From assembly GCA_951230915.1 (NCBI GenBank), contig OX579636.1, positions 42,535,912 through 42,599,911 on the forward strand: a stretch of 64,000 nucleotides of DNA. Reading direction: 5' to 3'. Positions 806-64,000 of this stretch are shown piece after piece. How positions within the stretch are numbered: the stretch's first letter is position 1; the number at the start of each line of letters is the position of its first letter. The translations under genes were made by a program, and so were the position numbers. Source of the DNA: Antitrichia curtipendula (Eukaryota > Streptophyta > Bryopsida > Hypnales > Leucodontaceae). The notes under the pieces are model-generated. The model ran no database searches. It saw only the letters and a list, made by a program, of their open reading frames with translations, and was not told where the DNA came from.

Positions 806-3800
806 TCAAGTGCTTGAATTGTCTTCAAGATCTGGTGTTGGTTGCGTTGCATTATTCAAACGACTTGATCTACGGACTTCCTGGCCAGAAGGCCCTGCTC
901 GATGAGCAGTTGGAATACGCACATCAGCATCTTCTGGTGCCTCATCACAGTCGCGATTCGCGTTGTTGTCATCTTCATCGTCTACACCATCAAAATCGAA
1001 TGGATCTTTGACAGCATCTGAGGTCTGATAGCCCTCGACCTCGGAATTTTCATTTTGAAGCTCAGTGACTATTCTTCCACGTCCACGATATCTGGGCACA
1101 AACCTCTTGTGCCGTTTCGCAGCAGGGTCTGTGCCATCAGCCTCTACAGCCGGTCTTCTTCGACCTCCGGAAATCACACATGGTGTGGTCGTCAAAGTGG
1201 GGTCCGGAGTGTCCGTTCGGGTGAACGGTTCTATCAGCACTCCATGGCGTCTCACTCCTATTCCCCGGATAGGGTTTGTAGGGGGGGTTGACGATGATGC
1301 TCTGCTAGTGTTCTTTCCTCCGCGAGAACCACAAGAACGCGACACATATTCACCCATGGCGGGGTCACAAGGGATTTGAGGGGGTCTTCCACCTCTAGTA
1401 GTATTCGAAATGTTCTCCACCGTCACTTCAGCATTCCCTATAGAGCCTAATCCTTCTCCAAAATGTATGGAGGTAGGATTTGGAGTTCTAGTAGCAGATG
1501 GAATAGACCGTTGCGCCTCTCGGACTCGTCCATGACCAATTATAGGAGCCGCAAAAGAAGGCGGGAGCGCAGCACTAAATTGTGTTTGAAGAATGTCATC
1601 ATTTTCCACACGCTCAGGGTCAAAACGCCTCCCAAAACCAATGTGCCGTTCATTTGTTGCATCTATACGAGCCATTCTCGTACCTCCGATGTTTGTAGCA
1701 TGGTGCCTTGTTTCGGATATATTGTCACCGGCTTGGCCTCCCACCCCGCCAAGTCTCCTACTACCGTTGCCATTATGGGCAGACCCATCATTATTTTGAG
1801 TTGTACGATTCCCCAAATTCCCTCCATTCCCATCATTGGAGTCGTCTCTATTCCCTCCATTGTTTCCTGGACGGGGGTGATCGTTGTTGTTGTCATCGTC
1901 GGAGGGGGGATCATCATTGCCAGGAATTGCTGCATTGGCTTCTTCACCCTCGGAAGAAGAAGAGATTCGTTGATCAGCGTACGCTCCACCAACGCCTTCG
2001 TTTGGAACAGGAGGAGGTGAAAGGTTGCGGCGAGGACCGGGCCCCCAATGATTTTTAGGAATATTGTCATCGAGATCTGGTCCAACCCCGTAGTAATTCC
2101 TCGCTTCCTCAAGGTGATCGGCCCCTTCTCCTCACAAATCTACATTTGCCCGGAATGGCGTAGGGGCCCTAGGCATTTCCATCTCTTCGTCTTCCGCATC
2201 TTCTGCTTACATTGCAGCAAATGCTCGATCAGGTTCGTTCACTGGGATGGGGCCAAGATCATCTTGATCGGAATCCTCCGAGAGCACATTTACGTCATAC
2301 CAACAAACTGGATCGGCCCCTGGTCTCTGACGAAGGACACGGCTATTGGTATAGATGTATACCAAAGCTTCGGCCTTATCCACTGTCAAGCGATTTCTGC
2401 TCCTGTTGTGGATAAAGAAATACATACTCCAATTCCTTTCACAAGACGATGCCGAACATGTAAGGGATAGAACACGCTCTGCTATTTTGGACAAGGCCCG
2501 ATCTGCGATCCAGTGCCACCATTGGTGGGGAAGCAAACTGCTCTCACGAATGTTGGGTGTTTCGTCAGGACTGTATGGTCCAGTATCCTCTTCGTATTCA
2601 GTTAGTTCCTCCATGACGACATCAAAACGCACACCCACCACATCTTTTAATTTGTGGACAACCCGATACAATGCACGCAGCGCAGTTCCGTCTTCTTTAA
2701 GCTGCGGATGGTCCCTGATGTATGGATTCAACAACGCACCTGCATAGTGAAGATCAGTAAATCTGAATTTCCATCTTTTTTTGAAGGTTATCTCCAACTC
2801 GTTAGCTAAGACGTCGGGTAGGTTGAAGGGTGGCTCTCTCAGTGAAAACACGTGTGCCCTTAAATTGTGCATTGTAAGCCACGCCTTGCCCATGGCTGGT
2901 TCTCGGCCATCAAACACACGCAAGGCCTTCAGCACGTCTTCCACTATGAACACATAATCTCTGCATCGTTGCCAAAAACCCAGCTCTCTAATAGTGTGGA
3001 CCACAGAGCCTGCGATGGTAGCCAATTGCGGACCATTTGGTACATCCCGTAACCCCGCCATGTAATTCTGAACACGTGGGTGTAGTATCAAGGCCTCCAG
3101 TGCAGTCCTCAATAGAACCAACCGTTGCATCATCAGGAAGTTACAAGCAAAGCGGGTTTTGGCAGGCACTAAGAGCTGCTTGTTTGGACTCAACTCACGA
3201 AAAGTGGACATTGTTGCATGATGGGCCCTAATGTATTGGCACAAGTGTTTTGCCCGGGCAATTAAGTTCTTGAAACCGGGGAGTTTGGCCCAATCTTCCA
3301 ACAACAAATCTAGTGTATGCGCCATACAACCCTGCTTGAAGATATGTGGGTATGTGGAAATGACATCCTTCATTGCTCCAAGCATGTTTTTGGCGTTGTC
3401 CGTACAAATTTGGGTTACATATTTGGGACCTACCTTGTCGATGAAGGCTTTCACTTGGTCTGCTATGTACGTCATAGTCTTCAGTTGCCAAGACGTGTCT
3501 ATGGATCCCAAAAACACATCACCAGTGGGACAAGACATCATGATGTTCATTAGGGGCCGACGATTGACGTTGTCCCAACCATCGGTGCATAGCGTGACCC
3601 CATAATTCTTCACAGCAAAGGCCGTTTTTGCTTTGATCTCGTTCTCGATTTGCAATCTCTTGGATTCAATCAAATGGGTCCTGAACTGATGGTACGAAGG
3701 TGGACTGTATTCAAAGCGCGCTACAGAGGTTGCCCTCACCGCCGCGATGAATGCTGGATTCCTCGCCACATTGAATGGCACATTCGCTTCATAGAAAAAA

Positions 3801-4366
3801 CTTGCCCACTTTTCATCCAAGTCCTTCCTCTTTGCCATATTCATAGCATCCTCCATGCGTTGTTGACGTACTGGTCCAGATCTTGTTGAATTTAAGGCAG
3901 CGCGGCTCATAGATTGTTGCGGAGGCTCAAATGATTTGGATGGATGACTACCATTTGTCTGCCCTCCCCCCTTTACTTCATTTTGAGTGGACTGGCTTGA
4001 ACTCGCTATGGGACCAACTATGCTTGGAGCGATCGGATCTGACTGCATGCCTTCCACGTTTTCAACCATCATTCGTTGAGGAACAAAGTTGGCACAGTTG
4101 GCAAATCGATGCCGCACAGCCCGAGGCATTTGGGGACACAAAGATTTATCCGACTTATTTTTGAACCCAAAATGCGCAAAAGCTCGCTCACGTTTGTAGC
4201 TAAATGTGTTGTTGCAGAAGAGGCAAGTCACTTTACTTCCATCATCTGAAAAATCGTACTCCGGTTCCCACTCCCTCGTTTGTTTTCGTAAGGTACCCAT
4301 TACAGCCCCGGGTAAGTGCAAAATAGGATGTTTCAACAAGGGTTCAGGATTCTTCAATGTCTTCAA
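806..4366 (-). pseudogene. hAT transposase with long C-terminal tail, two in-frame stops
   Basis: DNA transposase of the hAT superfamily, which excises and reinserts elements by a DDE mechanism in the nucleus. The first 719 codons (4366 down to 2207) contain a BED-like zinc finger (C48, C51, H65, C77), a DUF659-type RNase H-like core with TDGWDN (D262) and CTDNAKNM (D323), a C-x2-H near 347-350, and the hAT C-terminal dimerisation block around 620-680 with SSCERNWS (E643). A TAA at 2207-2209 and a TGA at 2132-2134 interrupt the frame. The same frame then runs on to 806, giving about 1187 codons, with a low-complexity Asp/Asn/Gly/Ser-rich and basic tail. The stops read most simply as Gln-to-TAA and Trp- or Arg-to-TGA changes. 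Start at 4366 chosen as first Met; Met23 is an alternative. The tail is unusual for hAT and could be a fused second protein. Family assignment is firm; present activity is doubtful. Confidence 0.9.
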
Positions 4367-4543
4367 GGAATACGTGCCAGTAACAACTGTTAGCGCCGAT
4401 CGTCCGCTTGAACTGATTTTGACATCACCTCAGCAGAAAATCGGGGCAGTCCTCCACCCACTATCTCAATCAACCCAGGAACTCAAAATGAACACCTGGA
4501 AAGAGGCACGGGTGGAAGACAAAGGGCCTCTTGCTGCCCCCTC

Positions 4544-13874: not shown

Positions 13875-15461
13875 ATGCAAGCAAAAGGAAGTGGTTCGTC
13901 TGGGAAGCGTCCGCTGCTCGTGGACATGGAGTAGATTGATGAAGAAAGTCTTCCACCAACACACATGTCATTGGCGTCAGGTTCATCACAGCCTTCATCG
14001 TCATTAGGGAAGAAGAGGGCAAAGAAGCTGCCGAATCCGAATTGGCCTCCACTACAATATTTAAATGAAGCTAGGCTAATATTGGTGGAGTTCTACAGAG
14101 TGCGAAGCATTGCATCATTGGAGAGAAACTATGTAAACAGGAATGTCAACGGTTACGATGCGTTAGTAGAGCATTTACGGAGAGAGCTTGACGAGAAGTT
14201 TGCCGCATCTGAGCAGTTCAACAATTGCACAGATTATTGGTTATACTCAGACTTCTTGGATAACACGGTGGTTCAGCTGACTACCAATGTTGTGGACAAT
14301 TGGCGTTATTGTATGAAAAAGAAAGAGGACAAGAGCAATTGGGATGAAGCAGATCTAGAATTTGTTTCAAAATTACGCATAGTTGAGACTTGGTGTCGTA
14401 ACTTTAGCGTAAGTCGCCATAAAACAAAACAACCGTGGAAAGAAACACAGGAAGAAAAAATTCTGGATGAATGTGTGAGCGGATCAATGTATTGGCTATC
14501 ACTGTCGGTAAAAGTGGTAACAATGCCAGGACGAGAGGCTGAAGGTACCTACGGGCATGTGAGGAAGGTGCGGCTTACGAAACTTGCGAACATCCCCACC
14601 TGGCTCGAGTTTGCGGGAAAGCACTTGAAGACCACAGATCAAAAGGCAAAACGTTGCGAGATGTTGGTTGAGGCTACAGGATGTCCGGTGAAGCATCCCG
14701 ACATCATCAGGTTGACATACATGCATCCAAAAACGATGGAAGGTTATTCACTTTGGTGGAATGGCGGGTCTTTAATTAATTTCCTAAGCAAATACGATTC
14801 CAAAGTTCCCGAATCAATGGAAGTGGATGACATTGTGAAGATGACGGATACCCAATTGACAATTGACGAGTTGCAGTGGATTGCCACATACCGCAAAAAT
14901 CGAGTGAACTTGGCACTGTCATTGTTGGTTATTGTGGGCAAATGCCACGAGGCGGACTACATACACAACGACATATCTACATCTAATAATTTGCTCCATT
15001 TTGATCCATGGAAAAAAGAGAAAGTATATTTGGGGATTTGTGATTGGGGACTTTCTAGTCAAGTCCTAGAGAACGCGCCATCAAGATACGGTTACCGAAA
15101 GCAGGAGGCACTTGATAAGGAGAAAGCAACTCGAAGGTTTGCTGCTCCGGAATTGTTCTATTTGTACGGAGAGCAAGGCTCAACTACCTCACTGGAGGTC
15201 ATGGAAAAAAAACATTTATACTCTAAAGTTGCTGATGCATATGCCACAGGATGGATAGCAGCTCAAATCTGGAAACAAGAGTGGGATCCAGCTTATTTTC
15301 GCAAGGACCAGGTGTGGAAATATACAAACCTACTAGTGAAATTGAAAAGCCTTCAAAACGAAGATCCGCAAGGAAGGGCGTCCATCCCGGATGTTCTTGA
15401 TAAATTGAGAATGGCACAGTACTGCTGGATTATGCCTAAGTGTTGTTATCGGAGACCGTAA
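13875..15461 (+). pseudogene. Protein-kinase-like gene, element-associated, one in-frame stop
   Basis: An intron-less frame of 529 codons runs from an ATG at 13875 to a TAA at 15461. A TAG at 13932-13934 (codon 20, probably a former Gln) leaves a 498-residue frame from Met at 13965 that could still be made by reinitiation. Numbering from that Met: an unrecognised N-terminal region, a glycine-loop-like GTYGHV (194-199), a candidate ATP lysine in FAGKHLK (K219), a catalytic loop YIHNDISTSNN with HND in place of HRD (D336 and Asn 341/342 kept), a metal-binding DWG in place of DFG (D360), and an activation-segment APE (394-396). Key acidic residues remain, so it is a divergent kinase rather than an obvious dead one. 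Substrate unknown. It lies divergent to the RING gene, with arrays D upstream and E downstream. Confidence 0.75.
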
Positions 15462-45831: not shown

Positions 45832-47429
45832 ATGCTGCCATGTAATGAGAACTCGAAGTTGAGTCGAATCGGACCGGACCAGTCAAGAAGATGGTCAGAT
45901 TCTTGTTTTTTTCCGACCGGCCCCTGTGCGAGAACTGCATGCACGATTTGCGTCTGCTTGATTCTACTTTCATGCACTTGGGTTGCGTCTGCCGCAGCCA
46001 ACTATCCCGATGGTACTAAATTCTCTTGCTCTCCTCACTTTACATTCTCCCCAAACCGCCTGTGGAAGCACTGCAGTGGCATTTGCTAAATTTAGGTGCC
46101 TTTCAAGTAGGGCTTTCAAATGCCTGTCAAATGTGAATTAGGTCATGTGGGACCTAAGTTACGTAATTCACTGACGGAAGTCCTTCGCCGGCTGTGGTGG
46201 GTACTAGGACGTTGTTGATACTGTAGATACTCTACAAGTGGTCACACTTCCGAGCGTACTCTGGACTGCCTGTGCTGAGGAAATTGGTTGTGCTCTCTAT
46301 TTTGACAGAGCCCCTCACTCTAGGCATCAACTATGGAAGGGTTGCAGACAACCTGCCTACAGCGAAAGCGACAGTGAAGCTAATCAAGAACATGGGAATT
46401 GGAAGGGTAAGGATTTTTGACCATGATGGGCCAACAATCGAGGCATTTGCGGGTTCAGGGCTTGACTTTATCGTTGGAATGGGAAGTGACGAAATCCCGC
46501 CGCTTGTGGATGCCAGTGCTGCAGACGCGTGGGTCGCTGCCAACATTGTGCCCTACTACCCGGCCACCAACATCGTCTACATCCTGGTCGGGAACGAACT
46601 CTTCGCAGATTCAACGCTGTCCGCTACCTGGCTGCAGCTCGTCCCTGCCATCCAAAACCTCCACACAAGCCTCCAGAGCCGCAACTTGTCAGCGATCCGT
46701 GTCTCCACAGCTGCTGAGTACGGCATTTTATCGCTCTCGTATCCTCCATCCAAGGGAGTGTTCCGCACGGACATTGCAACCCAAGTGATGACGCCGCTGT
46801 TAGAGTATTTGGACTCCACAAACTCATATCTCTTCATCAATGTGTACCCCTACTTCGGGTGGTCTTCAAACTCCCAGTACATCCCCTTGGATTATGCTTT
46901 ATTCACCCGGACGACCTCGTTCTTTAACGACTCCCAGTATGAATACTATAACCTTCTAGATGCCCAGTTGGATGCCATGTCGGCCGCTATGGCAGCGGTA
47001 GGCTATGGTACTGTGCGGATTGCCGTTAGTGAAACTGGCTGGCCGACAATGGGCGACTCGAACGAGCTTGGAGCCAACATCAGCAATGCGCAGATATACA
47101 ACCAGAATCTTGTGAACCATATCCTGAACACTCCGACGCAGGGTACTCCCATGAGGCAGGGGATCTTCATTCCCACCTTCATATTTGCGCTCTACAATGA
47201 AGACCTCAAGCCTGGAGGTACAACTGAGCGGAACTGGGGACTTTACTATCCCAGTGGAAGCCCTGTGTATCCCATAGACATCACATCCGTAAGCACCCCA
47301 ACCCCTGGTGGATCACCCAGCGGTGGAGGCGGCGGGGGTGAAGAACCTGAGAATACATGCCACGGTAAACCAAGTATTCTCCCGATGTATGCGTCGTTCT
47401 TAGGAGCCCTATTTAATCTTAGGATTTAG
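45832..47429 (+). CDS. Glucan endo-1,3-beta-glucosidase (GH17), probably GPI-anchored
   Basis: Secreted enzyme that hydrolyses beta-1,3-glucan (callose) in the wall and around plasmodesmata. Two exons: exon 1 (45832-46012) codes about 30 polar residues and a hydrophobic signal segment ending CTWVASAAA. An intron with GT at 46013 and TTTTGACAG at 46308 follows. Exon 2 (46309-47429) starts in phase at LTLGINYGRVADNLP. The GH17 barrel is complete: acid/base Glu in VGNEL (codon 46596), nucleophile Glu in VSETGWPT (codon 47031), FINVYPYF and NWGLYYP. After the barrel come a Pro/Gly-rich linker and a short hydrophobic C-terminus fitting a GPI signal. About 433 residues, no X8 domain. No frameshift or stop. 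The first Met gives a long n-region, so the start is less sure than the rest. Confidence 0.85.
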
Positions 47430-50672: not shown

Positions 50673-51790
50673 AGCATTTTAACTGTAATTCTTGAGAGAT
50701 GTATAGAGCCTTAGAAAGTCAAATTAGTTGCAATTAAATTTTATCACTATGTATGAATGTCTTTATGCAGTTTCAAAGTGATAGGTTGTAGACCACAATA
50801 ACACAATCCACAACCCCATTTCCATTCAAAGATCAGTGACAACAGGTATTAACTTCTAAAGCCCAAGATCTTTTTGGATTCAAAAACATCATTGCTTTTG
50901 AAGTGTTATAAATCTAAATGTCACTAAGGTAGAGAAATCTCAACCGTACAATCTTGTAGTGTATGCGTTGTAGATGATGTGAATCAAATTTGGAGTCATT
51001 TGGCCACATAGATTGCAAGATTATAATGTTTTAGTATTGAAAAAGGACGCTAAAAATTTCCTAGCAATACAGAAGTGAAATTCAATTACTAAACCTACTC
51101 AAATGAAAAAACTTGAAACTGTAAAGTGCTTCAAAACTAGCATATAAACAAATTGGTGAAAGAAAATATCATTCAATTGTCTCATCGTGACTGCAAAATG
51201 GCTTTGAAATGTCAAAAAATAGCAAGAAAAAATACATTTGAAGCTAAACCTCCTTCTATTAAAATGCTTCTTAGTCACTCATATCTTCTTGGATTGATAT
51301 GAAATTTTAAACACAAAAACTAAACTAGTATGCGCAACATTTCCAAAAACAATTATTAGAAACGGACATTGTATGAAGAAGACACAAGCCACCGAAGCAG
51401 AGTTGCTAGTATGTGAGCCTAGGAGCTTGAGCTTAAGAGCCTAGGAGCCTAAAAGCCTAGCTGATTTTGTGGATTTGACCTATGACCATGGACCTATAAC
51501 CGTGGAAATATGACCAAGGATTTAGACATAACCTTATATCTAGAGCAAGAGATTTACAATACAAATCATTTAAAATAAATCATAGTTGGTATAGTTTTGA
51601 AAAAGACAATTTTGTGTAAGGTGTTAATGATCATATAAATAAAATAAATCCACCAAACACTTACCAAACGACAATAATATCGTAGTCCAATATATCATAA
51701 ATAAAATCCAAAGCAAAGCGAAGCCTCCACCAATCAAAATGACAACCGAGTACTACACCAAAAAATAAATCCTCCTAAGCAGTGGGCATA
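50673..51790. other. AT-rich spacer
   Basis: Contains a short GAGCCTAGGA-like tandem (51414-51460). No gene supported. Confidence 0.4.
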
Positions 51791-54700
51791 TCAAGGTGAA
51801 TCCTCAAAAGACTCTGCGCTACTCGAGGAGCCTATCATGGAATCACCATTTGACTCTACTGCTTCTTCATCAATAAAATCTAAAAGTCGAGGATCTATAG
51901 TAATGATCTTCTATCGTGAAGGCCTAGAACCGTCTTGGATGTATGCATTTGCCATGTTTGTAGTGTACATTGGCGAATCAAAAGTCTTCTCTGGGCTCTG
52001 GAAAAATGCCGGGTTACAAAAGAAAGGTTGCGTTGTTATAGGGTCGGAATCTATAAATCTGACAAGCCACACATTTCATATTAGAAAGTAGTGAAGGACC
52101 AAACTTAAAGAACGAATGGAAGACAAGACTTTGTAAGGTTGACTTACTTACTAAAACGGGATTTTTTCTTCTTCGGCACAATGTCACGCAATTCTTGGTC
52201 TGGGTCATTAGAGGTCAGTGTCACAACTTCTATAACTGTAGTAGGTTTGGGTGCAATAGGTTTGGATGCAAGGCGGATCAATGGAGCCAAAAGCGCATCA
52301 AAGATTGCTTTATCTTCCTCAAGAGCAACAATGTGTCTTCCTGTTGATTGACATGCTAAAATTGAAGCCCCTGCCAATAAATTATTATTAGAGAGTTTTA
52401 ACATTGAACACAAATGAAGAAAATTATAGTGCAACAGAAAAGCAATAGAAAATAAATAGAATTAACTACTCACCAGTTGCAGCAGTGGCATCCAAAACAA
52501 AGTCACTAGGTATAATGCAAGACTCAATCAACATATGCATGAACATTTGATCTTTCTGTCAACCTCCCCGCCATGGGAGCTTTTCATTCATCAATTATAG
52601 ATCACTCTTTCTTGTGAAATTCTGCAATACATCATCTCTACTGACATTGAAACCTCGGGATTCAAGGTCTGGAATGTCTTGAAAGTTGAATTTTGACGGT
52701 GAACAACCCTCCAAGTCCCGAACAAGAAGAGTGACTCCAAAACGGTTGGTCTGCAAGGATTTGTAATCATTGAATGTCAGAAGCAAATTAACCAAGAATT
52801 TTAGAATTACAACTTTTCACAACTACACTTTATAGAAAAAATTAATCATATCAAGCCCGAAGGAGTGATCTTAGAGGACAAGTGGAGACGATTCATCCCC
52901 CACCATTCCTTTTGGATCTTCACTCCATTCCCCTGGTAGAGCTCTAGAATGCACCTCTTTGCTGGCACATTGTGTGGATGTATAACAATGAATGCCCCAT
53001 TGTCGTGAAGATGATTGTCCATCAAATCAAATACAGGGTCCAACCACCCTTCTGGTAACACATTCCAAGAGGGTATTTCCGAATCAAGATGACTCACCCC
53101 AGGGACCGGCAACCCCTCCGGCATGTCCACAATGATAAAGTCAAAACCAGGATGCTTGTTGATCTCGCCTAGGAACGAACGAGCCTTCTTTGATGCATGT
53201 TGAAAAATACAGTCATTGTCAATTCTTGGATAAAATTTGACATAAATTATTTTCAATTCAATGAAAAAACAACAACATATAAGAATGAGGATGAATGTTA
53301 AAGAACTCACTTTCCCAGCAAATGCCACCATGCCGTTGAATTCTTGAGTCAATGGACCATCATCACCACCAAGTAACTTAGCCACCGATAAATTGAGTAT
53401 TAACTCTTCTGAGCAAATTATATCGTTATCCTCTAATTGAACCAGTAGAGGTCTATGAGTGATCCTCTCTTGAATGAGCGATATGAACGAAGACGGTCGT
53501 TTAGTACCCACCGTGGAGGTGACAACAACCTGAGAGCCGCCATCAAGCACTGAAGATGCACCACCACCACCCTGATTCTCAATGTTGGCAGTTGGTACCT
53601 TGCCTTTCTCCGCAGCTTTCAAAGTTGCACGTTCTTTTTTTAGCACATTTCTTTCAGTTGCCTTCTCTACTTGCAATTTCATACGAAGTTCCATCTTCTT
53701 CTCAACTTCAACTCGCTTTGCAATGGCCTTGTCCTTTATATCGTCTTGCAAGCCTGTATAAACATTTACCACATCGTCTACCACCCCAGACTCTTGAATT
53801 GTTTGCCTAAGAAGAACCTTAGTGGTTGGTGTAAATGTTGGAACACACTCCAAGTACCATCCACATCCATTGAGATACGTTGATGTCCATGTCTTCAACT
53901 ATGTGGTGCTGAACATACAATCATCGGACCAAAGATCTAACCACGACCCCAAGAAAGGAGGAAGATCGGATTTTGCAATGGCTCATTTGGGAAACAACTC
54001 CAATTTGAAATATCTGCCATACAATATATTTCAAGTACACAAACAGAAATTTGATAGCAAAGTGCAAAATAATTTGAAGAATGATGAAATGGTCAAAGAA
54101 GAATGCATCGTTACTTGTAGACAACACGTTTTACAATAAGCGAAGAACCATCGTAATTCTTAAAAGAATCCGAGCGTTTGAAGTGCCCCTTCCTCGACAA
54201 ATCACCATGAAAAGCATTGTCCCACACCTTCATTCTCCAATTCTCCACATACTCGGATATGGTCTCGGGTTCAAGTGTTGAACTCATGTCCACGGGTGTA
54301 TTATCTCTGTTCACAATAAGTTCAAAGGATTCTCGAGCACTCTCCTCAATCTGTACAAATACTCACAAAGAATTAAAATGACAGTCTTATTGAATTCAAA
54401 AAACAAAAATGAAATGAAAAAGATAATGACATGGGCACTCACTCCTGCATACCACACAACTTTGTGCAAGAAGGACATGAGTCAATTTTCATTCACAGGT
54501 CTAGGTGGAAACCGACAAGCCTCCCTTGTCGGAGGAGAAGAATTCCACCACTTGAGCCAACGAACCTTGTAAATAGACTCAGCATTGGAATTTGCTAGAA
54601 GTTGAATCTTGTCAAGCGTCAATTCCGGATCCACATTCAAGCTCCAATGCCTCCCAATCTAATCACTCAAAATAGAGGTTAGAGGTTTAAATTTTTTGCT

Positions 54701-55351
54701 ACATGTATTAAATATAAAGAATACAATTGCTAGGCTAAAATAAATGGCACTTGTTATTCACCTCAACGAGCCACTTAGGAGTCAGGACTGAGAGATGGGT
54801 TTGCGACCGTCACCATCTTTGCAAGTTTTGAGTACATTTTCGTGGTTTTATCCTTCGCACCTTTCCGCATTGCTGTTGCAATACCTGCTTCACTAATGTC
54901 CGCCTCAGCAGTGCTTTCATGATAAATATGGACGGCAGCATCCGCCGCAAGCCCAATCTCGTGCTACACATGAAGTAATTCAGTTACAATATGTCAACTC
55001 TTGTTTTCACAAAAGAAAGCATTGGAATAAAAACAAAATGAGTAGAGCTTGATGAAAACCAAATTCATACTCTGAAAATGAAAGCTGTGAATACTTCCAA
55101 TGGCATAGAGTACCAAGTGTTCTTCACATTTTGTTGGCACTTTTGGAAATTTGATGCACTTAGGATTTCATTGAACTTGTCAACTGCCAAACCCCCATAC
55201 TTCTGAATTTGGTACAAAGTGTGCACCAAATTTGTCTTGACATGGGAATCCTCTGTTTGTCTGACAAACCAACAAAAAAATATACTAGAATGATACATAT
55301 AAAAACATGACCATCTACTACAAATCCCAATACAAAGGAATAAATTCTTAC

Positions 55352-55985
55352 TTGTTTATATCATGCATAGATTGCATGACAGCCCCAATTCTGCCTTTTG
55401 TTTCCAAGACAATGCAGTCCACTGAAATATGCCATGATTCATCCAAGCTTTATGACGGTGGTTACCGTCACAAATGAAGAATTTGGAATTCTTCAAATGT
55501 CGGAGCTCGCCTACTTTTTGCAAAATAGCAAAAAAATTCTTGCTCTCCTCCTCCCACACATCCCCCCATTTAGTGGAATCTTGTTCTGAAACTTCCATAG
55601 ACTCATCAGCCTCATTTGTAGTGGATACGTAAAAAACGCAAGCACCTTCCTTGTAGCCATAAACGAACTCTTGTTCTAACTTTGTTAAATCACCTGCAAG
55701 CGTGGGCCTAACCATAGACATGGGAACAAGCCGGCACAATGGGATTCGGAGCCTTGACAAATGGTGAGGCTTCAAACGCAAACTATTAATAGTCCCCACT
55801 GAATCGACCTTTTGTTCCCGCCAAATGTCATGCTCAAGCATTGTTGCAACGTCGTCGCCTTCTTCTTCCAAGGACTCCACGTCTTCGTCATCGCCTCCCA
55901 TTTCAGGTTGCTCTATCTCTGCATTGTCCGTGCTATCTATTTGTTGTTGGATTTCCAATTGCGATCCACTTGGTGTACAAGGTTC
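55352..55985 (-). pseudogene. Exon 3 of the ParB/methyltransferase gene: ParB-like domain
   Basis: The exon opens after TTGTAG with an acidic stretch (MGGDDEDVESLEEEGDD), then RLVPMSMVRPTLAGDLTKLE, then HLKNSKFFICDGNHRHKAWM. The DGNHR signature is the nucleotide/phosphate-binding element of ParB-like and sulfiredoxin folds. After AWMNHG a 2-base insertion shifts the frame; the other frame continues as ISVDCIVLETKGRIG to the donor CAA|GTAAG at 55352. Domain identity rests on this signature and the spacing around it. Confidence 0.6.
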
Positions 55986-56560
55986 CTACAAACAACATAT
56001 TTGCAACTAAGAGACATATTATAGAATAAAGACAATTTTTGGGAATAACATGAAAGAATTCTATCCCAATGCAAATATATAACTTCAAAAATAAGTCATC
56101 AAAGCTTACCGGCAAGCCGCGGCCATTAATTTGCGCAACAGCTGGTGCATTAGAGCTTTGACCCTGAATTCTAATGCCCTACTCATACAAAGGAACCAAA
56201 CATGTTATTACTAGTCACTCACACAATGTTATATGCACCAAAGCCAATTGCAATGCCACAATAAAAAAATGACCTATCCAAGGTTTAAAGTGAAATTGCT
56301 AACCTCATTTGATCAAATGGACAGTTTTCGTGGCGTTGTGACCCGTATTTGTTGTAGAAAATTACACGATAGAATATTATGCTTAGTGACAGTCATGGTT
56401 TAGTAATTGAACACTCTTACAACATATTCAAGGATCCAAGCCCAATTAGAATAAATAAAATGAAATATTAAAAAAATACTAATCAAACAGATGGCACTTT
56501 CCTACCTTCCACTTCCTAAACCATTTCAAGGTTTGGTAGTTCAAAAGAAGAAGAGGCTAG

Positions 56561-56582
56561 AGTCTTTCGGTACCGAAAGACT
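56561..56582. repeat. Perfect 22-bp palindrome with CTTTCGGTACCGAAAG core
   Basis: Every base of this 22-mer pairs with its mirror. The same core recurs imperfectly at 57219-57236, 57548-57565, 57795-57812 and 57949-57970, all in the same 1.8-kb intron. Confidence 0.85.
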
Positions 56583-57522
56583 ATGACGGGGCAAGACTAA
56601 TAGCTCTACATTCAAGTAATCAAAGGTTTCAACAATGAGAAATTCATTGATCATTTATTTAGCATTTGATTCATTGATCATAGCATCAATACGAACAACA
56701 ATTGTATAGTAGCATTCATCATCTAATTGCAATACTTTCCATATCATTACAACTTTATTATGGCCTTCAATGAATACTTCAAAGACTTTAAACCACTAGA
56801 ATCCTTTGGGTGCAACCAATTAGAGGTGAAGAGTTTATTAAAGCAACTAATAAAAGTTTAGACATTTTGTACTTCAAGCGTTTCCATTCTAGGTGAGTAC
56901 ACTATTCTATATTTTCAACTTCAAGAGTTATAGAATATTACTAGAGTGTCAAAAAATTACGAAACCACTTGAATTGCATTTCTCTTGAGTTCACAAATAA
57001 CCTTATCAAATTTTTGGGTCATTTGACCTTTCAAGATAAAGTGTCTCTTGTAATGTATCTACCGTCAGTTAAACTGTAATTTTGATGCAAGAGGGACAAG
57101 CATCAAAACATCTCTCGGTAATGATAGATAGAAACCCAGCATGCTAAAGAGTACAAAAAAATAATTGTGCACATAAAATTCCTTGGGAATTGAGCAGCAA
57201 TGCCCATGGCCAAAATACCTTTCTGTACCGAAAGAGGATTACACCTGAATGATTTGTGATCTGAATTTGTGGTTTGAAAAATATTTACGCCTAAATATGA
57301 TTTGTATGTTCATTCAGTCACAATTGGAATCCAATGTCCCGTGGTAAATTGTGCATCTAGAATGAAATGTCTTGTGATGTACAAGTTAATAGTTCTGACT
57401 GAGTTGATAAGTATCAAATAGGTTGTGCATACGGGATTTGCCTGAGATCAAATTGTTGTTTCATGCAATTGATCAAATGTTGCTTTCATGCCTCACCAAA
57501 ATGTTGTTGTTCAATTTTTGTG

Positions 57523-57590
57523 AGCACCGTGTTGGTGATGCTGGAGGTCTTTTGGTACCGAAAGACCTCTAGCATCACCAACACGGTGCT
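57523..57590. repeat. 68-nt hairpin, copy 1
   Basis: Two 34-base arms meet at GGTACC. Only two positions mismatch and both would be G-U pairs in RNA. The stem runs from AGCACCGTG through TTGGTGATGCTGGAGGTC to the core. It lies in an intron of the ParB/methyltransferase relic. Confidence 0.9.
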
Positions 57591-57770
57591 TAATGTTTAT
57601 AAAAACTGTGAACCATATTGCGACATAATTTGACATGCATTCTCTCCAATAATACTAATAAGACCTAGAGCATTTTAATAAATCAATATCTCATGGCAAT
57701 CATATGTTCACTATATTATTTACTTGAGTACTTTTAGATCCATGGACTGTTTACATTTTTGGTTTTTATG

Positions 57771-57838
57771 AGCTCTGCATTGGTGATGCTGGAGGTCTTT
57801 CGGCGACGAAAGACCTCTAGCATCACCAATGCAGAGCT
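57771..57838. repeat. 68-nt hairpin, copy 2
   Basis: Same length and same inner stem (TTGGTGATGCTGGAGGTC) as copy 1, but the outer nine bases differ (AGCTCTGCA instead of AGCACCGTG) and still pair with their own right arm. The central loop reads CGGCGACG. Confidence 0.9.
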
Positions 57839-58249
57839 AAACTTTTATAATAAAATTTCTTATGATTGTTTTGCCGTGTCTCAAAATCAATATAGTAAAG
57901 ATGTAATGCTACCTAAAGTTCAATCGGTCACACTGCAGACGACGACAAAAAGATCTTTTGATATCGAAAGAAAAATTCAAGCACAACTACTGTGCTTTAG
58001 GAAATGACTTACTATTGCTTGCTGTGCCGTGTCGAGAGATGGTACTGGAGGCTGCGTGCTTACAACAACAGGAATTTTGTCACCCACAACAGCATTGGAA
58101 TCAAAGCCTCCGGTTTCCTTCGCACGAGGTGCAGCCATTTTTGTTGCGCCGCTACGAGTCACAGTTCCCTTATAAGGTAACATCTCTGAACGTTGTTGAG
58201 CCCGTTGCACAACCTTTTCTCCTTCAAGTTCCTGCGCAGTCTGTCCTCG

Positions 58250-59002
58250 AAGTTAGTACAGAGTGAGTACAACAATTAGTACGTGGTGAGTACATCATCT
58301 TCAAATGAGGTTGCACAATCTACTAAGAGAATATTACAATTCGACGCAATGGATTGCTATTAGGACTGCTCAATCACCGTTAACGTGTTCAAAAGGTTGT
58401 TTAGTTGCATAAGCTACACTGTAAGAGGTAAGCCAGAAAACTTGACCTAAACCCTAAAGCCGCCAAGTCCACCCTTCGGCGACCTAAATTTTCCAAGTCC
58501 CATGATTCTAGCCAGTATGCCAGCTTGGGCTCAATTACGATGTGCTGGCACTGCGATTCGTTTCCTACAAAATTCTACATTTGTGTCTATTTGATTCATT
58601 ACTAATGTAGGCTAGGGTCCATTAAAGGTCAAATGACAAAAAAACATTTGATATGGTTATTAGCAAACTTAAAAGAAATCCACCTCAAGCAGTTTCGTAA
58701 TTTTTTGATACTCTAGTAATATTTTACAAATTCAAAAGTTGACTACATAGGATAGCGTAATGACTTGGAACGGATACCTTTGACATAAAAAATTTAAATG
58801 ATTGCTTCAAAAAAATCCTCACCTCTCCTTGGTTGCACCTGAAAAGTTGTGGTGGTTATATCTCTTTGAAGTGTTCACTTAAGACCATTTTTAAGGTGTT
58901 GTAAAATGAAAAGTGTTGCAATTAGGTACTGCTACCTAAATAAAGTAGCAATACACTGCTACCTACATTAGAAGCAAATTCGAGCCACCAAAAGGTTGTG
59001 TA
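58250..59002. other. Spacer upstream of the visible exons
   Basis: May hold the first exon and promoter of the ParB/methyltransferase gene; I could not place either. A telomere-like CCTAAACCCTAAAG occurs near 58446. Confidence 0.35.
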
Positions 59003-59300
59003 AGGGCTGTTCCCTGTGCTGGGAACAGCACAACGCTGTCTGAATATTTAAATAATTAAAAAATTATTAAAAAATTAAAAAAATTAAAATTAAAAATTAA
59101 AAAAATTAAAAAAATTAAAAAAATTAAAAAAAATTATTAAAAAATTATTTAAAAAAAATTATTTAAATCATTTCTGACCTGGCAGTGTCCCGGCCAGGTC
59201 AGCAGCCTCTGTGTACAGCTGAATTTTCAGTTGACTGAGTTCCCGAGGTTGGGAACCCAGTGATAACTCGCGGCCCTTTGGGGGCCTCAGTTATCTTCTA
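59003..59300. repeat. GC-rich hairpins flanking an AAAATT simple repeat
   Basis: A GCTGTTCCC...GGGAACAGC hairpin lies at about 59008-59032. A long AAAATT-type simple repeat follows (59041-59165). GTTCCCGAGGTTGGGAAC and an imperfect GATAACT...AGTTATC hairpin lie at 59240-59295. The whole may be one small transposon, but I cannot define its ends. Confidence 0.5.
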
Positions 59301-60239
59301 ATGCTTAAAGAATCCCACTCAACTACTTCACTAGGTTCAAGAAGCAACATCAAGAATTATTTGATAATGAACTGCATTTTTGACGCTGAGCATGAAATGG
59401 AAAATCTAGATTAATTGAAATAAAAGACTTGAATATCAATGAAGAATCAACCAACATCTCTATCAATCAAACTAGGAAAGGAACGACTAACTTACTTCTT
59501 CTTGAATTGCACTCAAATCTTCTCAAATACCTACATAGATGGTTGCCTTAGTTGTTGATGAGTGACTCTCAAACTCTAAGGCTTTCTGGGTTCCCCCAAA
59601 AGAATACTCCTCAATAGTGTCCAAGACTCTGCCTGATCTCATCAGGGATTGATGTAACGCTCTTGGCGTCAAATATCTAAGTGAACTAATCCTTCTCTTC
59701 TACTTCCTCTTCTTATTACCTAGTGCGAGTAGGACATCTTCTAAGATAAAGAAATCACCAATCTAATGCGCTTCTAAAGACAATACAAACTGTAGCCTTC
59801 TTGGAGCTCAAGAAAATGACGCTCTGAAGTCCTACAACTCAAATGAAATTGCCATTAGAGAATTGGTTAGTAGAAGTATTTGAAACCATTGAAGTTGGTT
59901 ACAAATAAATGTGCCACTATAAAGTTAGTTTAAATTTGAAATTATGGCGCCTCTATAGCTATCAGTGCCGTTTATATCATTATTGTTCTCCTAGATTTTG
60001 CTTGTAATCATAGAGATTGGCGCACATGATGTCATTCAAACAATTCGCTACCCCATAAAGGTTTGATTTGATCCTGGATTTTGATCCGGTGCCGTCATGG
60101 AGCATTTACCACTTTCAATGATAAATGCAAATGTACAATTATGTCATCTTCAGCTTTGAGGTATCCTTCAGATAGTTTACATTTAACTCATTTTTTATCG
60201 GAGATCAAAACGGTTCAATCTCAAAGATCACCAAGTATA
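59301..60239. other. Spacer without a supported gene
   Basis: Balanced composition but no long frame. It could contain 5' sequence of the gene that resumes at 62782, because the transposon in between is an insertion. Confidence 0.35.
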
Positions 60240-60242
60240 TAA

Positions 60243-62703
60243 GGGCCGGTTTATACTTGGGGCTGGATGAACAGGGTTGTCCGTGTCACGTCACGTTTGG
60301 ACGGACGTGACGTCAAGATGTGACGTGACGTTTTGTTCGAACGACGTCATGACGGAATATTTTAAAAATTTGAAGGAATTTTACAAAATTCTTTACATAG
60401 AAAATTGTACATTAGACTAATATGTTCAATAGTAGTAGTACAATTGATATTCCATTTATATTTGTAAAAAAAATGAAACTAAAGTTCAAAATTTTCTGAA
60501 ATTTTAGGGTTAGGGTTAGGGATGTCACTTTAGGGTTAGGTATGTCAGGATTCGTGACGCGTCACGACGGACGTGACGTGACATCACGACGCAAAATGCC
60601 CACGTCACGTCCAGGCCGGCCGGAACTCTCCAAATGAACCAATAGGATGGCTCAATTTCTCCAAATCCGGCCCAAGGGCTTTATACTAGGGCTGGATTGA
60701 TACCACCATTCATCCTATGTGTCGCCTTAGGTGGCGTAGTTTTGGCGCCAAACCATCTAGCCCCAGAGGAGCAATCGGGATGAGGTTTTGGGTGGCCCGA
60801 TTTTCCATCTAGGGCCGGATTGGGGCCGGATTGGGCTCCTCCATTAGGTTGTACAAATCTCCACCATTGATGAAAAGAATTTTATTTTTTATTTTATTTA
60901 CAAAGTCTTTGAATTTACAAACAAACTAAATAAGAAGTGAAACAAGAAAATTTTGGTCTGCTTGTTCTGTCACACTGAAGATTTATGTTCTGTCACTGAT
61001 TTTCTGCTAATCAAAAATCAAAAATTATTTTCCATTCACTGCATTACAGATTTGCAGTGAAGGCCAGTGACTAGCCATATGTTAATAGAGCCCCTGGAGA
61101 CAATTATAATGAAAATTTCTAAAATTTGAAATTTTAATTAAAAATTAAAAAAAGTAATAAGATTAAAAAAGAATTTCAACATAAGAAAAAAAACTTCAAG
61201 AAAAAACAATAAAAAACAACAACTTTTCTTCTATTTTCCACTGAAATATTATATAATTAAAATCCACATGCTTCACAACTTGAGTGACAGATCAATGTCT
61301 AGACCCATTTCTTTACCCAAAAAATAATTAAAAAATAATTAAAGCTATTTGCATAAGCGTCAACATAGAATTGAGATTGAATTTGAAACTAAGGAATAAT
61401 ACTAATGATACAAAGGTAAATTTGCTTATGATAGGCAAACCACCTATGACATGCACCTAGGAAATGACCCATTAGAGTCTTACATCAACCCATGACAATT
61501 TTTTTTCAATACATGAGATTAGGACTTCATTAGGTTGGTTAGTGGCCAAAATCAATGCCTTGGGTGATGGTGATGGAGCTATTAGTGATTGTTTTAGAAA
61601 CTTCTACCTTTTTAGTATTAATTCATCAAAGTAAGTGATTTTTTTATTCCTTTATGTTGTGACCCTATTATGAAATATTGTAACTATTTTAGGTAGTAGG
61701 ATAGTCATCAAGCATACATTGACTTTTTGCTAGTTTTAGGATAGTGTATAGACTCTTTTAAGCCAATTGGACAATACACTTCAAAAATTTATAAGAAATT
61801 TATACTTTGTAAAAAAATATCCAATTGCTCTCTTTATTTCTCACTGTTATGTTTGTATGGAAAAAAATCTAAATATTTTTGCCAATTGTAACAAGGCAAA
61901 GCACTCATTTTGTCTTATATAGGCAAATTTACTTAGAAACATTTTGCATTTGTATAGTCACCATGTTGCAAAAGTAGGAAAATAGGGAATGTGACTTAAT
62001 GTACATGGACTACATAAATAATAAAATAAATATAATAAAATAAATGAAGTCTGCTTTCATTTAAATATGATTTTAAAAAATTAAAAAATTAAATAGAAAA
62101 AATAGGCAAGGAAAAGAAAAGTTCCAAGTTTTTGTTTTTGTTTTTAATTCTTTCTTTCAAAAGACAGAAACAAGAAGAGAAAGGAAAAGGTTCAAATAAA
62201 ATAAAATAAAATAAAAATTCCAATAGAAATTAGGAAAGAAAAACAAAAAGGTTTTAAAATATTAAAAAAATCTCTCTTCTATTTTTGAAATAGATAAAAT
62301 AGGAATAAAATAAAAAGTTTTAAAATATCTTAAAAATATCTTTTATATATTTGAAATTGAACAAATAAAAAATAAAATAAAAAAACTGAAAAAATCTCTC
62401 TTTTATTCTTTTAAAATAGAAAAAATAAGAAGAAAAATGAAATATTCATGTTCTATGTTTTTTTAATTGAATTTTAAGAAAATTCAAGAACACATTAATT
62501 GAAAATTCAGCCCTAGAATCCGACCTCACTACTTTACATTATCGAAGGCCGAGTGATGAATTGGAAATCTGGCCCTAGAATCCGGCCTCACCACTTTACA
62601 TTATTTAGGGCCGGAGTGGTGAATTGGGGCCGGATTGAAGGCCGGATTGATGGCAAATCGGGCCAGTAATCCATCCGACCCCAGAGCATGTATAAACCGG
62701 CCC
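60243..62703. mobile_element. PIF/Harbinger-like non-autonomous element, 2461 bp
   Basis: It starts GGGCCGGTTTATAC and ends GTATAAACCGGCCC, with TAA on both flanks (60240-60242 and 62704-62706). A 3-bp TWA duplication with GGSC-type ends is the PIF/Harbinger pattern. The interior has repeated GGGGCCGGATTG words, a tandem duplication of about 65 bases at 62510-62640, and an AT-rich non-coding middle. A second left-end-like sequence (AAGGGCTTTATACTAGGGCT) at about 60674 and a CCGGCCC at 60667-60673 suggest a related element nested at the left side. No transposase gene. Confidence 0.8.
60272..60632 (+). mobile_element. Nested hAT-like MITE
   Basis: Begins CAGGGTTGTCCGTGTCACG within the left part of the PIF-like element. 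Inside, CGTGACGTCA-type words recur in both orientations near both ends (60280-60350 and 60555-60610). The left flank GGATGAAC and the right flank AAATGAAC share six of eight bases, as a decayed 8-bp duplication would. The right terminus is eroded. It shares CAGGGTTGTC with the end at 16367. Confidence 0.5.
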
Positions 62704-62781
62704 TAAGAGTGTGATAGGTCCTCCTACAATCAGTAATATCTTGTGTAGCAAATTAATTGCAATAACTTGGTTTCTACAAGT

Positions 62782-64000
62782 ATGGCATCAATTAGAGCTG
62801 ATGGTTATGAGGTGCCTTTGGTATTGCTTGCAAATGATTTGGGACTAGCAATGGTTTCCAATCATATGCTGCATGTTAAGTTTAGATTTGTTGAATTGTC
62901 AATATATGTCAAAGAGGAGGTTTATTCGGATTCTGGTCAGTTGAAGAAATCCATCTTATTGCAAAAGTTCTTAGGAGAAGATGGACACTTCTGGACGCTT
63001 CCTCCAGGTTGTTTTAGAGCTTTTGGGCTTTTGTGCCCCCTCATGGCAACGCCCACTGAGATTCTAAGTCGTCATTCAACAACTTCTACAGTAGATATGC
63101 CATATGGCACCCCCACTTGTTCGGAGGGTCCAAGTTCGTCGGGTGAACATTTGTATGTTACACCTCCGCTATTGCGCTCCATTAAACAAGAAAGGTTAGA
63201 ACCCATTATTGAACTCTCGAGTGAGTCTGATGGTGATTCTCCTCATATTCCTATAACATGTTGTTCTAGGAAGCTTGCTACGACATCAATTCCTTCAATT
63301 CTTCCTATCTTTCAAGATACACCTAGTTTTCTTCAGTGCCTACGTCGTCTAGGTGATGTTTGGAGGGCTAGGAATGAACTTGCTAGTCTGAACTTTGACA
63401 AAGTTCCTTTCTATCCTGTGCCGTGTTTATCGCCATCTTACAATGGAAACATTGTATTCTAGTTACCACCGCTATCAAGTACTTCATCTAGTAAAGCATC
63501 ACCTACTATGCTTATTGGAATGGACAAACGTTATGATGGGAACATCTGGTGTAGGACTTTCACCACCAATATCCATAACTATGATAACTTGACTTTTAGA
63601 AAGTCACACTGCGTTGGACAGTTAGTATGTATGAACTCGAATTGTGATTTCTTGACAAGATCATCATCAAGAAACAAAACAGAGTGGTCTGGATGTTCTA
63701 AGGAGTCCTTCAAAATTGGTGGCGACCCTCCACTAGGTAGTACCATTGTCGGTAGGATTTGCAAAAGTCCTCTTGCTTGTGTGAGCATTTGCCAAGCCAG
63801 AATTTATTATGTTATGAACAAGGATGGAACAACTCGAGGATGCATACATCTAGGGACACATTTTCACTCGGTCGCTCTTGGTACCTGTCGCAAATCATTA
63901 GATACAATATCGACGCTCATTGGAGAAGAGGTGTCAAAGACTGCAACAACAACAAACTCAGTAATTGCTATGGCAGCTAGTAAGGAGTTCTTGGAGAGCT
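62782..64000 (+). pseudogene. Unknown Cys/His-rich protein gene, one in-frame TAG, runs off the window
   Basis: A continuous frame starts at ATG 62782 (MASIRADGYEVPLVLLANDLG), passes through a TAG at 63460-63462 and continues open to the window end. The first part has a Ser/Thr-rich stretch and an acidic SUMO-interaction-like IIELSSESDGDS. The part after the TAG is Cys/His-rich: HCVGQLVCMNSNCDFLTR, then ICKSPLACVSICQARIYYV, then CIHLGTHFHSVALGTCRK. The order of C-x4-C-x4-C and a later H-x3-H-x-H resembles zinc-binding DNA-recognition modules (FLYWCH/WRKY-GCM type) found in front of Mutator-like transposases, but I cannot assign a family. The TAG most simply replaces a Gln codon. The start may not be the original one because a transposon sits 79 bases upstream. 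Confidence 0.5.

What the first reader, a model, noticed from the sequence alone, without database searches (positions are those of the whole stretch)
51791..58249. A plant-type genome carries an intron-rich ParB-like plus DNA-methyltransferase-like gene
Seen: a DGNHR segment, a coiled coil, a motif IV-like IIVDMPEG block, and a downstream motif I (FVLDATAATGAS, then GRHIVALE), spread over at least twelve spliced exons. Known: ParB-methylase fusions with motif order IV-to-I are familiar from bacteria and phages. Inference: an acquired and intron-populated modification gene, perhaps carried by a mobile element, now decayed here. An intact relative elsewhere could be an undescribed eukaryotic DNA modification enzyme.
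Basis: partly seen in the sequence, partly recalled or inferred. Interest (0 to 1): 0.92.

Follow-up and report, generated by a model that had tools for sequence, protein, structure and literature searches.

The report
Moss-type jumping gene carrying methyltransferase-like protein
This is one decayed copy of a large family of plant jumping genes that carry, beside their transposase gene, a gene for a ParB-like protein fused to a DNA-methyltransferase-like domain, and also clusters of short mirror-image DNA sites that look like docking sites for it, so the element may recognise and mark its own DNA.

Summary
On the minus strand, 12 exon pieces (51794-58252), mostly with canonical splice ends, encode a ParB-like exon, a charged linker and an N6/N4-type methyltransferase domain in motif order IV to I. 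This copy is broken by two frameshifts and six stops. Better-kept relatives exist: 150 of 150 scored matches (1106 candidates) in the same 400-Mb genome, and two proteins of the moss Ceratodon, one above Pfam's cut-off for N6_N4_Mtase.

The gene belongs to a 15.5-kb DNA transposon (51398-66899, past the window end) with 9-10 bp target duplications and a divergent transposase gene. Of the listed matches, 79 of 79 methyltransferase/transposase pairs 4-16 kb apart are divergent (random mean 0.44).

New here: sub-families carry arrays of their own 16-bp inverted repeat, NNNNCG-N4-CGNNNN, 5' of the ParB exon. CTCTCG-N4-CGAGAG occurs 1552 times in the genome; with a 5-bp spacer 6 times. In this genome the catalytic motif is D[M/V/L]PEG (22 of 22 copies seen) instead of DPPY.

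ParB-methyltransferase accessory genes are already reported in algal transposons. The land-plant host, Mutator-like carrier, site arrays and altered motif are the additions. Best reading: a self-recognition system analogous to VANC anti-silencing. Binding and activity are untested.

The parts
51398..64000 (.). Mutator-like DNA transposon, left end to window end; it continues to 66899 in the contig (15,502 bp)
   Evidence: paralogue own2, 93-98% identical in pieces, aligned end to end; termini and target duplications
51388..51397 (+). Left target-site duplication GCCACCGAAG (right copy GCCACTGAAG after 66899)
   Evidence: paralogue has ATCATGTTCT on both sides, exact
51398..51454 (+). Left terminal sequence CAGAGTTGCTAGTATGTGAGCC..., similar to the ends of other copies and sub-families
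51794..52058 (-). Exon L (C-terminus, one in-frame stop)
   Evidence: 5' limit read from the acceptor by eye
52147..52371 (-). Exon K: rest of motif I (GAS...GRHIVALEED)
52475..52750 (-). Exon J: region before motif I and FVLDATAAT; two in-frame stops (near 52595 and 52560)
52873..53199 (-). Exon I: motif IV region, IIVDMPEG; splice limits not clear in this copy
53311..54012 (-). Exon H: conserved middle plus charged linker; in-frame stops near 53984 and 53900
54117..54350 (-). Exon G
54443..54658 (-). Exon F (in-frame stop near 54483)
54762..54963 (-). Exon E (frameshift near 54786)
55071..55262 (-). Exon D
55351..55985 (-). Exon C: ParB-like domain with DGNHR; deletion with frameshift near 55430 relative to relatives
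56110..56178 (-). Exon B
58013..58252 (-). Exon A (5' limit not determined)
56564..56579 (.). Inverted-repeat site CTTTCGGTACCGAAAG, exact
57219..57234 (.). Inverted-repeat site, 1 mismatch
57549..57564 (.). Inverted-repeat site, 1 mismatch
57797..57812 (.). Inverted-repeat site, 3 mismatches
57955..57970 (.). Inverted-repeat site, 3 mismatches
62749..64000 (+). Divergent transposase gene, first part (frames 62749-63459 and 63463-64320; further pieces to about 66216 beyond the window); also broken by stops
   Evidence: relatives with open frames up to 858 aa

Best explanation
The locus is a decayed copy of a high-copy, two-gene DNA transposon of Mutator type in a moss-related plant genome. One gene is the transposase. 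The divergent gene encodes an accessory protein: a ParB/sulfiredoxin-fold N-terminal domain, a conserved helical middle, a charged linker and a beta-type amino-methyltransferase-derived C-terminal domain. The proposed mechanism is that the accessory protein, probably as a dimer, binds the element's own arrays of 16-bp inverted repeats (6-bp half-sites ending in CG, 4-bp spacer) in the 5' introns and intergenic region. There it methylates, or reads with SAM bound, the element's DNA and so blocks host silencing or controls expression of its own element. Shown: gene, element, two-gene architecture, purifying selection, site arrays and their exact spacing. Inferred: that this protein binds the sites, that it uses SAM, and that the outcome is anti-silencing or self-marking.
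For: Element ends and duplications in three copies. 79 of 79 pairs at 4-16 kb are divergent, involving 79 of 150 methyltransferase and 79 of 140 transposase matches listed; random mean 0.44, maximum 4. Methyltransferase homology. ParB-like model. Site arrays: 5 matches in the 64-kb window, all in intron A-B, shuffles mean 0.16; spacer 4 gives 94 sites against 2-14 for each other spacer from 0 to 12 over 12 element regions; 65 sites in 52.4 kb upstream and 1 in 22.9 kb in or downstream of exon C, nine regions. Genome-wide, CTCTCG-N4-CGAGAG 1552 places (pattern read backwards 6) against 6 with spacer 5 (backwards 34). dN/dS 0.04-0.36 for exon I, median 0.13, 10 pairs. Functional precedent: VANC proteins of VANDAL elements bind family-specific motif repeats in introns and upstream regions of their own element (PMC5735166, abstract and one results section; PMC10398659, passages).
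Against: No direct evidence links the protein to the sites. Eleven of 16 site clusters examined on contig C1 (the first 50 of 1552 places) have no listed methyltransferase copy within 8 kb, although only 150 of 1106 candidates were listed. One class A copy with exon C (L017/L018) shows no site of its family within 3 mismatches. With up to 2 mismatches the window family's 18-mer has 44 places against 18 for the control. In the window copy only 2 strict sites remain, against 1.7 in shuffles. Motif IV lacks the aromatic residue in all 22 copies seen. No Pfam transposase or ParB model matched.
Confidence: 0.6

Rival explanations
1. The inverted-repeat arrays are binding sites of the transposase (subterminal or internal transposase sites), and the ParB-methyltransferase protein does something else.
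For: The transposase is encoded by the same elements; one site in L028 lies between two transposase open frames. Transposases are known to bind repeated internal sites (recalled).
Against: 65 of 66 sites in nine regions lie upstream of exon C (52.4 kb upstream, 22.9 kb downstream examined), and in the three full elements they mostly cluster near the 5' part of the methyltransferase gene rather than near the element ends. CG-containing, family-specific motifs in accessory-gene introns resemble the VANC pattern.
Confidence: 0.2
2. The accessory protein is a catalytically dead, SAM-independent DNA-binding regulator; the methyltransferase fold is only a scaffold.
For: D[M/V/L]PEG replaces DPPY in 22 of 22 copies seen.
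Against: Motif I residues D...TGAS and the acidic pair after it are largely kept, exons are under purifying selection, and the Ceratodon homologues have DTPF and DQPY, nearer the catalytic form.
Confidence: 0.35
3. A host modification gene captured by a transposon (Pack-MULE-like), with no role for the element.
For: Plant MULEs capture genes (recalled; a passage of PMC12477816 mentions Pack-MULEs).
Against: The same divergent two-gene arrangement recurs in sub-families whose accessory proteins are about 50% identical, with coding exons under constraint.
Confidence: 0.05
4. Endogenous viral or bacterial-contaminant DNA.
Against: Spliceosomal introns, chromosome-scale contigs with copies throughout, target duplications, no relative found in viral contigs (only two peptide patterns scanned), only two weak methyltransferase hits in phages.
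Confidence: 0.02

Closest known systems
[quoted passage not shown] its refs 50 and 51 not read)
   Same: Same two domains in one protein of about 1100 aa, carried by a DNA transposon on the strand opposite to the transposase; the authors already propose binding and epigenetic modification of their own transposon.
   Different: Here: land plant, Mutator-like element with 9-10 bp duplications instead of Sola1, well over 100 copies, element-specific inverted-repeat arrays, motif IV D[M/V/L]PEG. Sequence relationship to the algal proteins not tested.
Ceratodon purpureus hypothetical proteins M758_1G295400 and KC19_7G101700
   Same: The first is homologous over nearly the whole length (31% identity, 88% coverage, E 3.8e-152); the second over the middle and methyltransferase parts.
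   Different: Motif IV is DTPF and DQPY; genomic context not available here.
VANC anti-silencing proteins of Arabidopsis VANDAL elements (Mutator-like: recalled)
   Same: Accessory protein of a plant transposon; short motifs in repeats in introns of the accessory gene and upstream regions, differing between families.
   Different: VANC has DUF1985/DUF287 and causes methylation loss; no such domain was found in the Ceratodon homologue, and no methyltransferase domain is mentioned for VANC in what I read.
Beta-class DNA adenine methyltransferases CcrM and DpnA
   Same: Motif order IV then I; profile match E 3.3e-6 and 8.4e-6.
   Different: Motif IV not canonical here; the roughly 700 profile positions before motif IV have no match in CcrM.
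Bdelloid N4CMT (PMC8885841, passages read)
   Same: Bacterial-type amino-methyltransferase working in a eukaryote on transposons.
   Different: Host gene with chromodomain and SPPY motif; not element-borne.

Membership tests
Beta-type N6/N4 amino-methyltransferase (PF01555) | Profile match above the curated cut-off | tested here: met
   Met by the Ceratodon homologue, 30.4 bits over 26.7. Not reached by the joined window copy itself, 20.6, nor by the L027/L026 joined relative, 25.0.
Beta-type N6/N4 amino-methyltransferase (PF01555) | Motif order IV before I | tested here: met
   profile aligned to CcrM residues 32-254
Beta-type N6/N4 amino-methyltransferase (PF01555) | Catalytic (D/N/S)PP(Y/F/W) | tested here: not met
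   D[M/V/L]PEG in 22 of 22 copies; Ceratodon DTPF, DQPY. Hence filed as a derived homologue, not as an active member.
Beta-type N6/N4 amino-methyltransferase (PF01555) | Methyl transfer to DNA | not testable with these tools
   needs biochemistry
ParB / sulfiredoxin fold | Sequence profile match (PF02195 or PDB ParB) | tested here: inconclusive
   No ParB hit in Pfam at E<=10 nor in the PDB profile search
ParB / sulfiredoxin fold | Fold | tested here: inconclusive
ParB / sulfiredoxin fold | CTP-dependent clamp | not testable with these tools
   needs biochemistry
Mutator-like transposon | 9-11 bp target duplication | tested here: met
   10/10 (own2), 9/10 (window), 8/9 (L028/L027); none found for six class A copies, whose other end is unknown
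Mutator-like transposon | Terminal inverted repeats | tested here: met
   43 bp, 84% in L028/L027; weaker in the window family, seen by eye
Mutator-like transposon | MULE-type DDE transposase | tested here: inconclusive
   No Pfam or PDB match. A SWIM-like CTCPDF...CKH C-terminus is seen by eye in L028; label recalled.
Algal ParB-methyltransferase transposon accessory genes | Both domains in one protein in a transposon, opposite strand to the transposase | tested here: met
   ParB part by model only
Algal ParB-methyltransferase transposon accessory genes | Sequence homology to the algal proteins | not tested
   algal sequences not held
VANC | DUF1985/DUF287 | tested here: not met
   Only PF01555 at E<=10 in the Ceratodon homologue. 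So it may work like VANC but is not a VANC.
VANC | Family-specific motif arrays in own noncoding regions | tested here: met

The most novel reading that the evidence does not exclude
A eukaryotic transposon family carries a complete self-marking system: a ParB-like/methyltransferase-derived protein plus co-evolving parS-like arrays (NNNNCG-N4-CGNNNN) that address it to its own DNA. It runs on an unusual amino-methyltransferase active site (D[M/V/L]PEG) that either modifies cytosine at the invariant CG pairs or reads their methylation state. Sub-family divergence of half-sites would be the signature of repeated re-targeting.
Probability: 0.4. Interest if true: 0.92.

Novelty: new variant of a known kind. 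Interest (0 to 1): 0.8.

Why it matters
If right, it is a bacterial-style DNA-partition/modification module turned into a transposon's own targeting system in land plants, with its DNA addresses readable from sequence. It would make testable how transposons tell self from host during epigenetic silencing. It would also supply a set of sequence-specific DNA-binding proteins, each with its site already predicted, and show whether non-5mC DNA marks exist on plant transposons.

Tried and rejected
Pfam on nine separate exon frames: nothing above noise. First homologue search with the decayed joined copy: 7989 candidates, none at E<=1e-3; a family alignment succeeded. Phage tblastn with exon C: none. 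Viral-contig scan: 126 stretches matched a pattern, none a relative. First fold, of the whole Ceratodon protein: pLDDT 45, not used. Transposase class by Pfam and PDB: none. Viral, contaminant and captured-host-gene readings are held unlikely for the reasons given. Near-palindromes of any kind: window element 9 (shuffles 0-7), L028/L027 element 10 (0-7), own2 6 (1-9, so not above shuffles); it is the family-specific sites that stand out. Class A copies: no target duplication found in the first 9 kb of each of six regions.

Post hoc choices: the core CGGNNCCG was read off the first three sub-families. Of five further copies, 2 of 5 had it repeated (L030, L033) and 3 of 5 did not. The wider form NNNNCG-N4-CGNNNN was defined after seeing those three, so searches are partly descriptive. 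The genome-wide spacer comparison is the cleaner test, but tandem duplication of arrays inflates 1552, and only one half-site type was searched that way. Shuffled half-site controls, 20 each: maximum 0, 1 and 2 hits against 9, 15 and 17 observed.

Papers: PMC12477816 abstract, passages, first part of one results section and parts 1-2 of 5 of the reference list; PMC5735166 abstract and one section; PMC10398659 and PMC8885841 passages; others only in listings. Searches for ParB with methyltransferase/methylase and transposon, plant, alga, fern, moss, Volvox or MULE terms; in what they listed I saw no land-plant report. The library lacks most subscription papers, and refs 50 and 51 were not read.
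Full report
WHAT IS THERE. The minus strand of 51794-58252 holds 12 exon pieces, mostly bounded by canonical splice signals (exon I has no clear canonical site in this copy). They read, in order, a low-complexity start (A, B), a ParB-like exon with FFICDGNHRHKAW (C), conserved exons (D-G), a charged linker (H), motif IV of an amino-methyltransferase (I, IIVDMPEG), the region before motif I (J), motif I itself split by an intron (J/K, FVLDATAAT|GAS...GRHIVALEED), and a C-terminal exon (L). Exons of the same order were recovered in nine other copies, two of them cut short at the 5' side. The window copy is decayed by two frameshifts (exons C and E) and six in-frame stops (F, H twice, J twice, L); many relatives are open over these exons.

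METHYLTRANSFERASE. The joined window copy gives Pfam N6_N4_Mtase at E 4.6e-4, below the curated score. A less broken relative gives E 2.2e-5, still below it, and a PHROG methyltransferase family at 8e-6. A search of 5.8 billion proteins with an alignment of three copies found one protein among 5355 candidates, Ceratodon purpureus M758_1G295400, E 3.8e-152, and with that added a second, KC19_7G101700. The first exceeds the Pfam cut-off over profile positions 2-217 of 221. A family profile matches CcrM from motif IV to I, E 3.3e-6, and DpnA. In this genome motif IV is D[M/V/L]PEG in 22 of 22 copies examined (12 chosen for diversity, 10 already held), whereas the Ceratodon proteins have DTPF and DQPY. 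Motif I is largely kept as D-x-T-x-x-TGAS.

THE ELEMENT. A paralogue 2.2 Mb away on the same contig is 93-98% identical in pieces along the whole unit and ends sharply at both sides, with a perfect 10-bp duplication; the window copy has 9 of 10 matching. The unit is 15,502 bp in the window copy and 14,970 bp in the paralogue. A third copy from another sub-family (L028/L027) is 15.0 kb with 43-bp terminal repeats, 84% identical, and an 8-of-9 duplication. Each of these three copies carries a second gene on the other strand, divergent from the methyltransferase gene. In L028 its main frame is 709 aa, with a C-terminal CTCPDF...CKHFYYLF stretch in a further frame. Pfam and PDB do not classify it; I call it Mutator-like from the duplications, the terminal repeats and the zinc-finger-like C-terminus.

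COPY NUMBER AND ARCHITECTURE. The motif IV exon gave 150 matches of 150 scored, 1106 candidates, all at E below 1e-22. The transposase core gave 140 of 140 scored, 1507 candidates, all below 1e-142, with open frames up to 858 aa. Between the two lists, 79 pairs lie 4-16 kb apart and all 79 have the transposase upstream on the opposite strand. Random placement of the transposases gives a mean of 0.44 and a maximum of 4 such copies. Leaving out a tandem cluster on C1, 65 of 136 methyltransferase copies are paired. Both lists are capped, so these are lower bounds.

SELECTION. Pairwise dN/dS between copies (pairs with dS 0.08-1.2) is 0.04-0.36 (median 0.13, 10 pairs) for exon I, 0.09-0.20 (3 pairs) for exon C and 0.04-0.87 (median 0.26, 17 pairs) for exon J. 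The highest values in exons I and J (0.36 and 0.87) belong to the window/paralogue pair, as expected of decayed copies. The protein, D[M/V/L]PEG included, has therefore been kept by selection while the family spread.

SITE ARRAYS. In the window the palindrome CTTTCGGTACCGAAAG (up to 3 mismatches) occurs 5 times, all in the intron between exons A and B; shuffles average 0.16 and none of 100 reaches 5. Its exact 18-bp form occurs at two places in 400 Mb, the window copy and its paralogue; with two mismatches allowed there are 44 places against 18 for the control. Other sub-families have other palindromes at the same place: CCCTCGGCGCCGAGGG (L026, L027/L028) and GTTGCGGTACCGCAAC (three of the four class A copies that keep exon C; the fourth has none). 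In five further copies fetched to test this, two had the original core repeated and three had a wider form. The general form is a 6-bp half-site ending in CG, a 4-bp spacer and the inverted half-site. Over 12 element regions spacer 4 gives 94 such sites; each of the other twelve spacers between 0 and 12 gives 2 to 14. Flanking DNA of the window copy gives 7 (5.1 in shuffles) and 0. In nine regions 65 sites lie upstream of exon C (52.4 kb) and one in or downstream of it (22.9 kb); six other spacers together give 20 upstream. Half-sites are mostly constant within a copy, while spacer letters vary. Genome-wide, CTCTCG-N4-CGAGAG occurs 1552 times against 6 for the pattern read backwards; with five spacer bases it occurs 6 times (backwards 34). 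Of the first 16 clusters listed on C1, 5 lie within 8 kb upstream of a listed methyltransferase exon; of 11 such exons in that stretch 4 have a site upstream and none downstream (circular shifts P 0.0004). Eleven clusters remain unassigned.

HOW IT MOST LIKELY WORKS. An inverted repeat with fixed spacing implies a dimeric binder. ParB-like proteins bind palindromic sites (established knowledge), so the ParB-like region or the neighbouring exons are the natural reader, with the methyltransferase-derived domain delivered to the element. VANC proteins of Arabidopsis VANDAL elements, also Mutator-like (recalled), bind short family-specific motifs in introns of their own genes and upstream regions, and these motifs evolve through tandem repeats (PMC5735166 section read; PMC10398659 passages). 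The layout here is the same, with a different protein. Every strict site keeps two CG pairs by definition, and the four half-site types seen (CTTTCG, CCCTCG, CTTGCG, CTCTCG) share no A or T position, so if the protein methylates its sites a cytosine is the likelier base; this is inference. An alternative is a SAM-binding reader that has lost catalysis.

WHAT IS KNOWN AND WHAT IS NEW. Ectocarpus Sola1-1_Ec32 carries a 1104-aa opposite-strand protein with ParB-like and N4/N6-methyltransferase domains, and the authors cite similar algal cases and suggest self-binding and self-modification (PMC12477816, passage). So the protein kind and the idea are known. New, as far as the searches named above go, are the land-plant host, the Mutator-like carrier with a conserved two-gene plan in 79 listed copies (65 outside one tandem cluster), the candidate address sequences and their genome-wide spacing rule, and the altered active site.

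Noticed in passing
window 806-4429, minus strand: Two long open frames that look like a BED-finger hAT transposase (recognised from memory, no family search run).
   Followed up: no
window 46227-47429, plus strand: Open frame resembling a plant GH17 glucan endo-1,3-beta-glucosidase (from memory).
   Followed up: no
window 13935-15461, plus strand: 508-aa open frame with a kinase-like stretch (from memory).
   Followed up: no
G000 C1:41.44-42.12 Mb: At least 14 methyltransferase and 16 transposase matches, nearly identical, many about 40-50 kb apart (some in opposite orientation): the transposon sits in a large segmental amplification.
   Followed up: partly
G000 C1:23958764-23961052 and C1:14497969-14499411: Dense arrays of CTCTCG-N4-CGAGAG (12 and 6 sites) with no listed methyltransferase copy within 8 kb upstream; could be non-autonomous relatives or unlisted copies.
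   Followed up: no
L009, L015 (class A copies a3, a6): Nearly identical copies cut off at different 5' points inside the gene.
   Followed up: no
L017/L018 (class A copy a7): Keeps exon C but shows no family palindrome within 3 mismatches.
   Followed up: no
L027:7578-8195: Open frame resembling a CACTA (En/Spm) transposase start, just outside the element's end (from memory).
   Followed up: no
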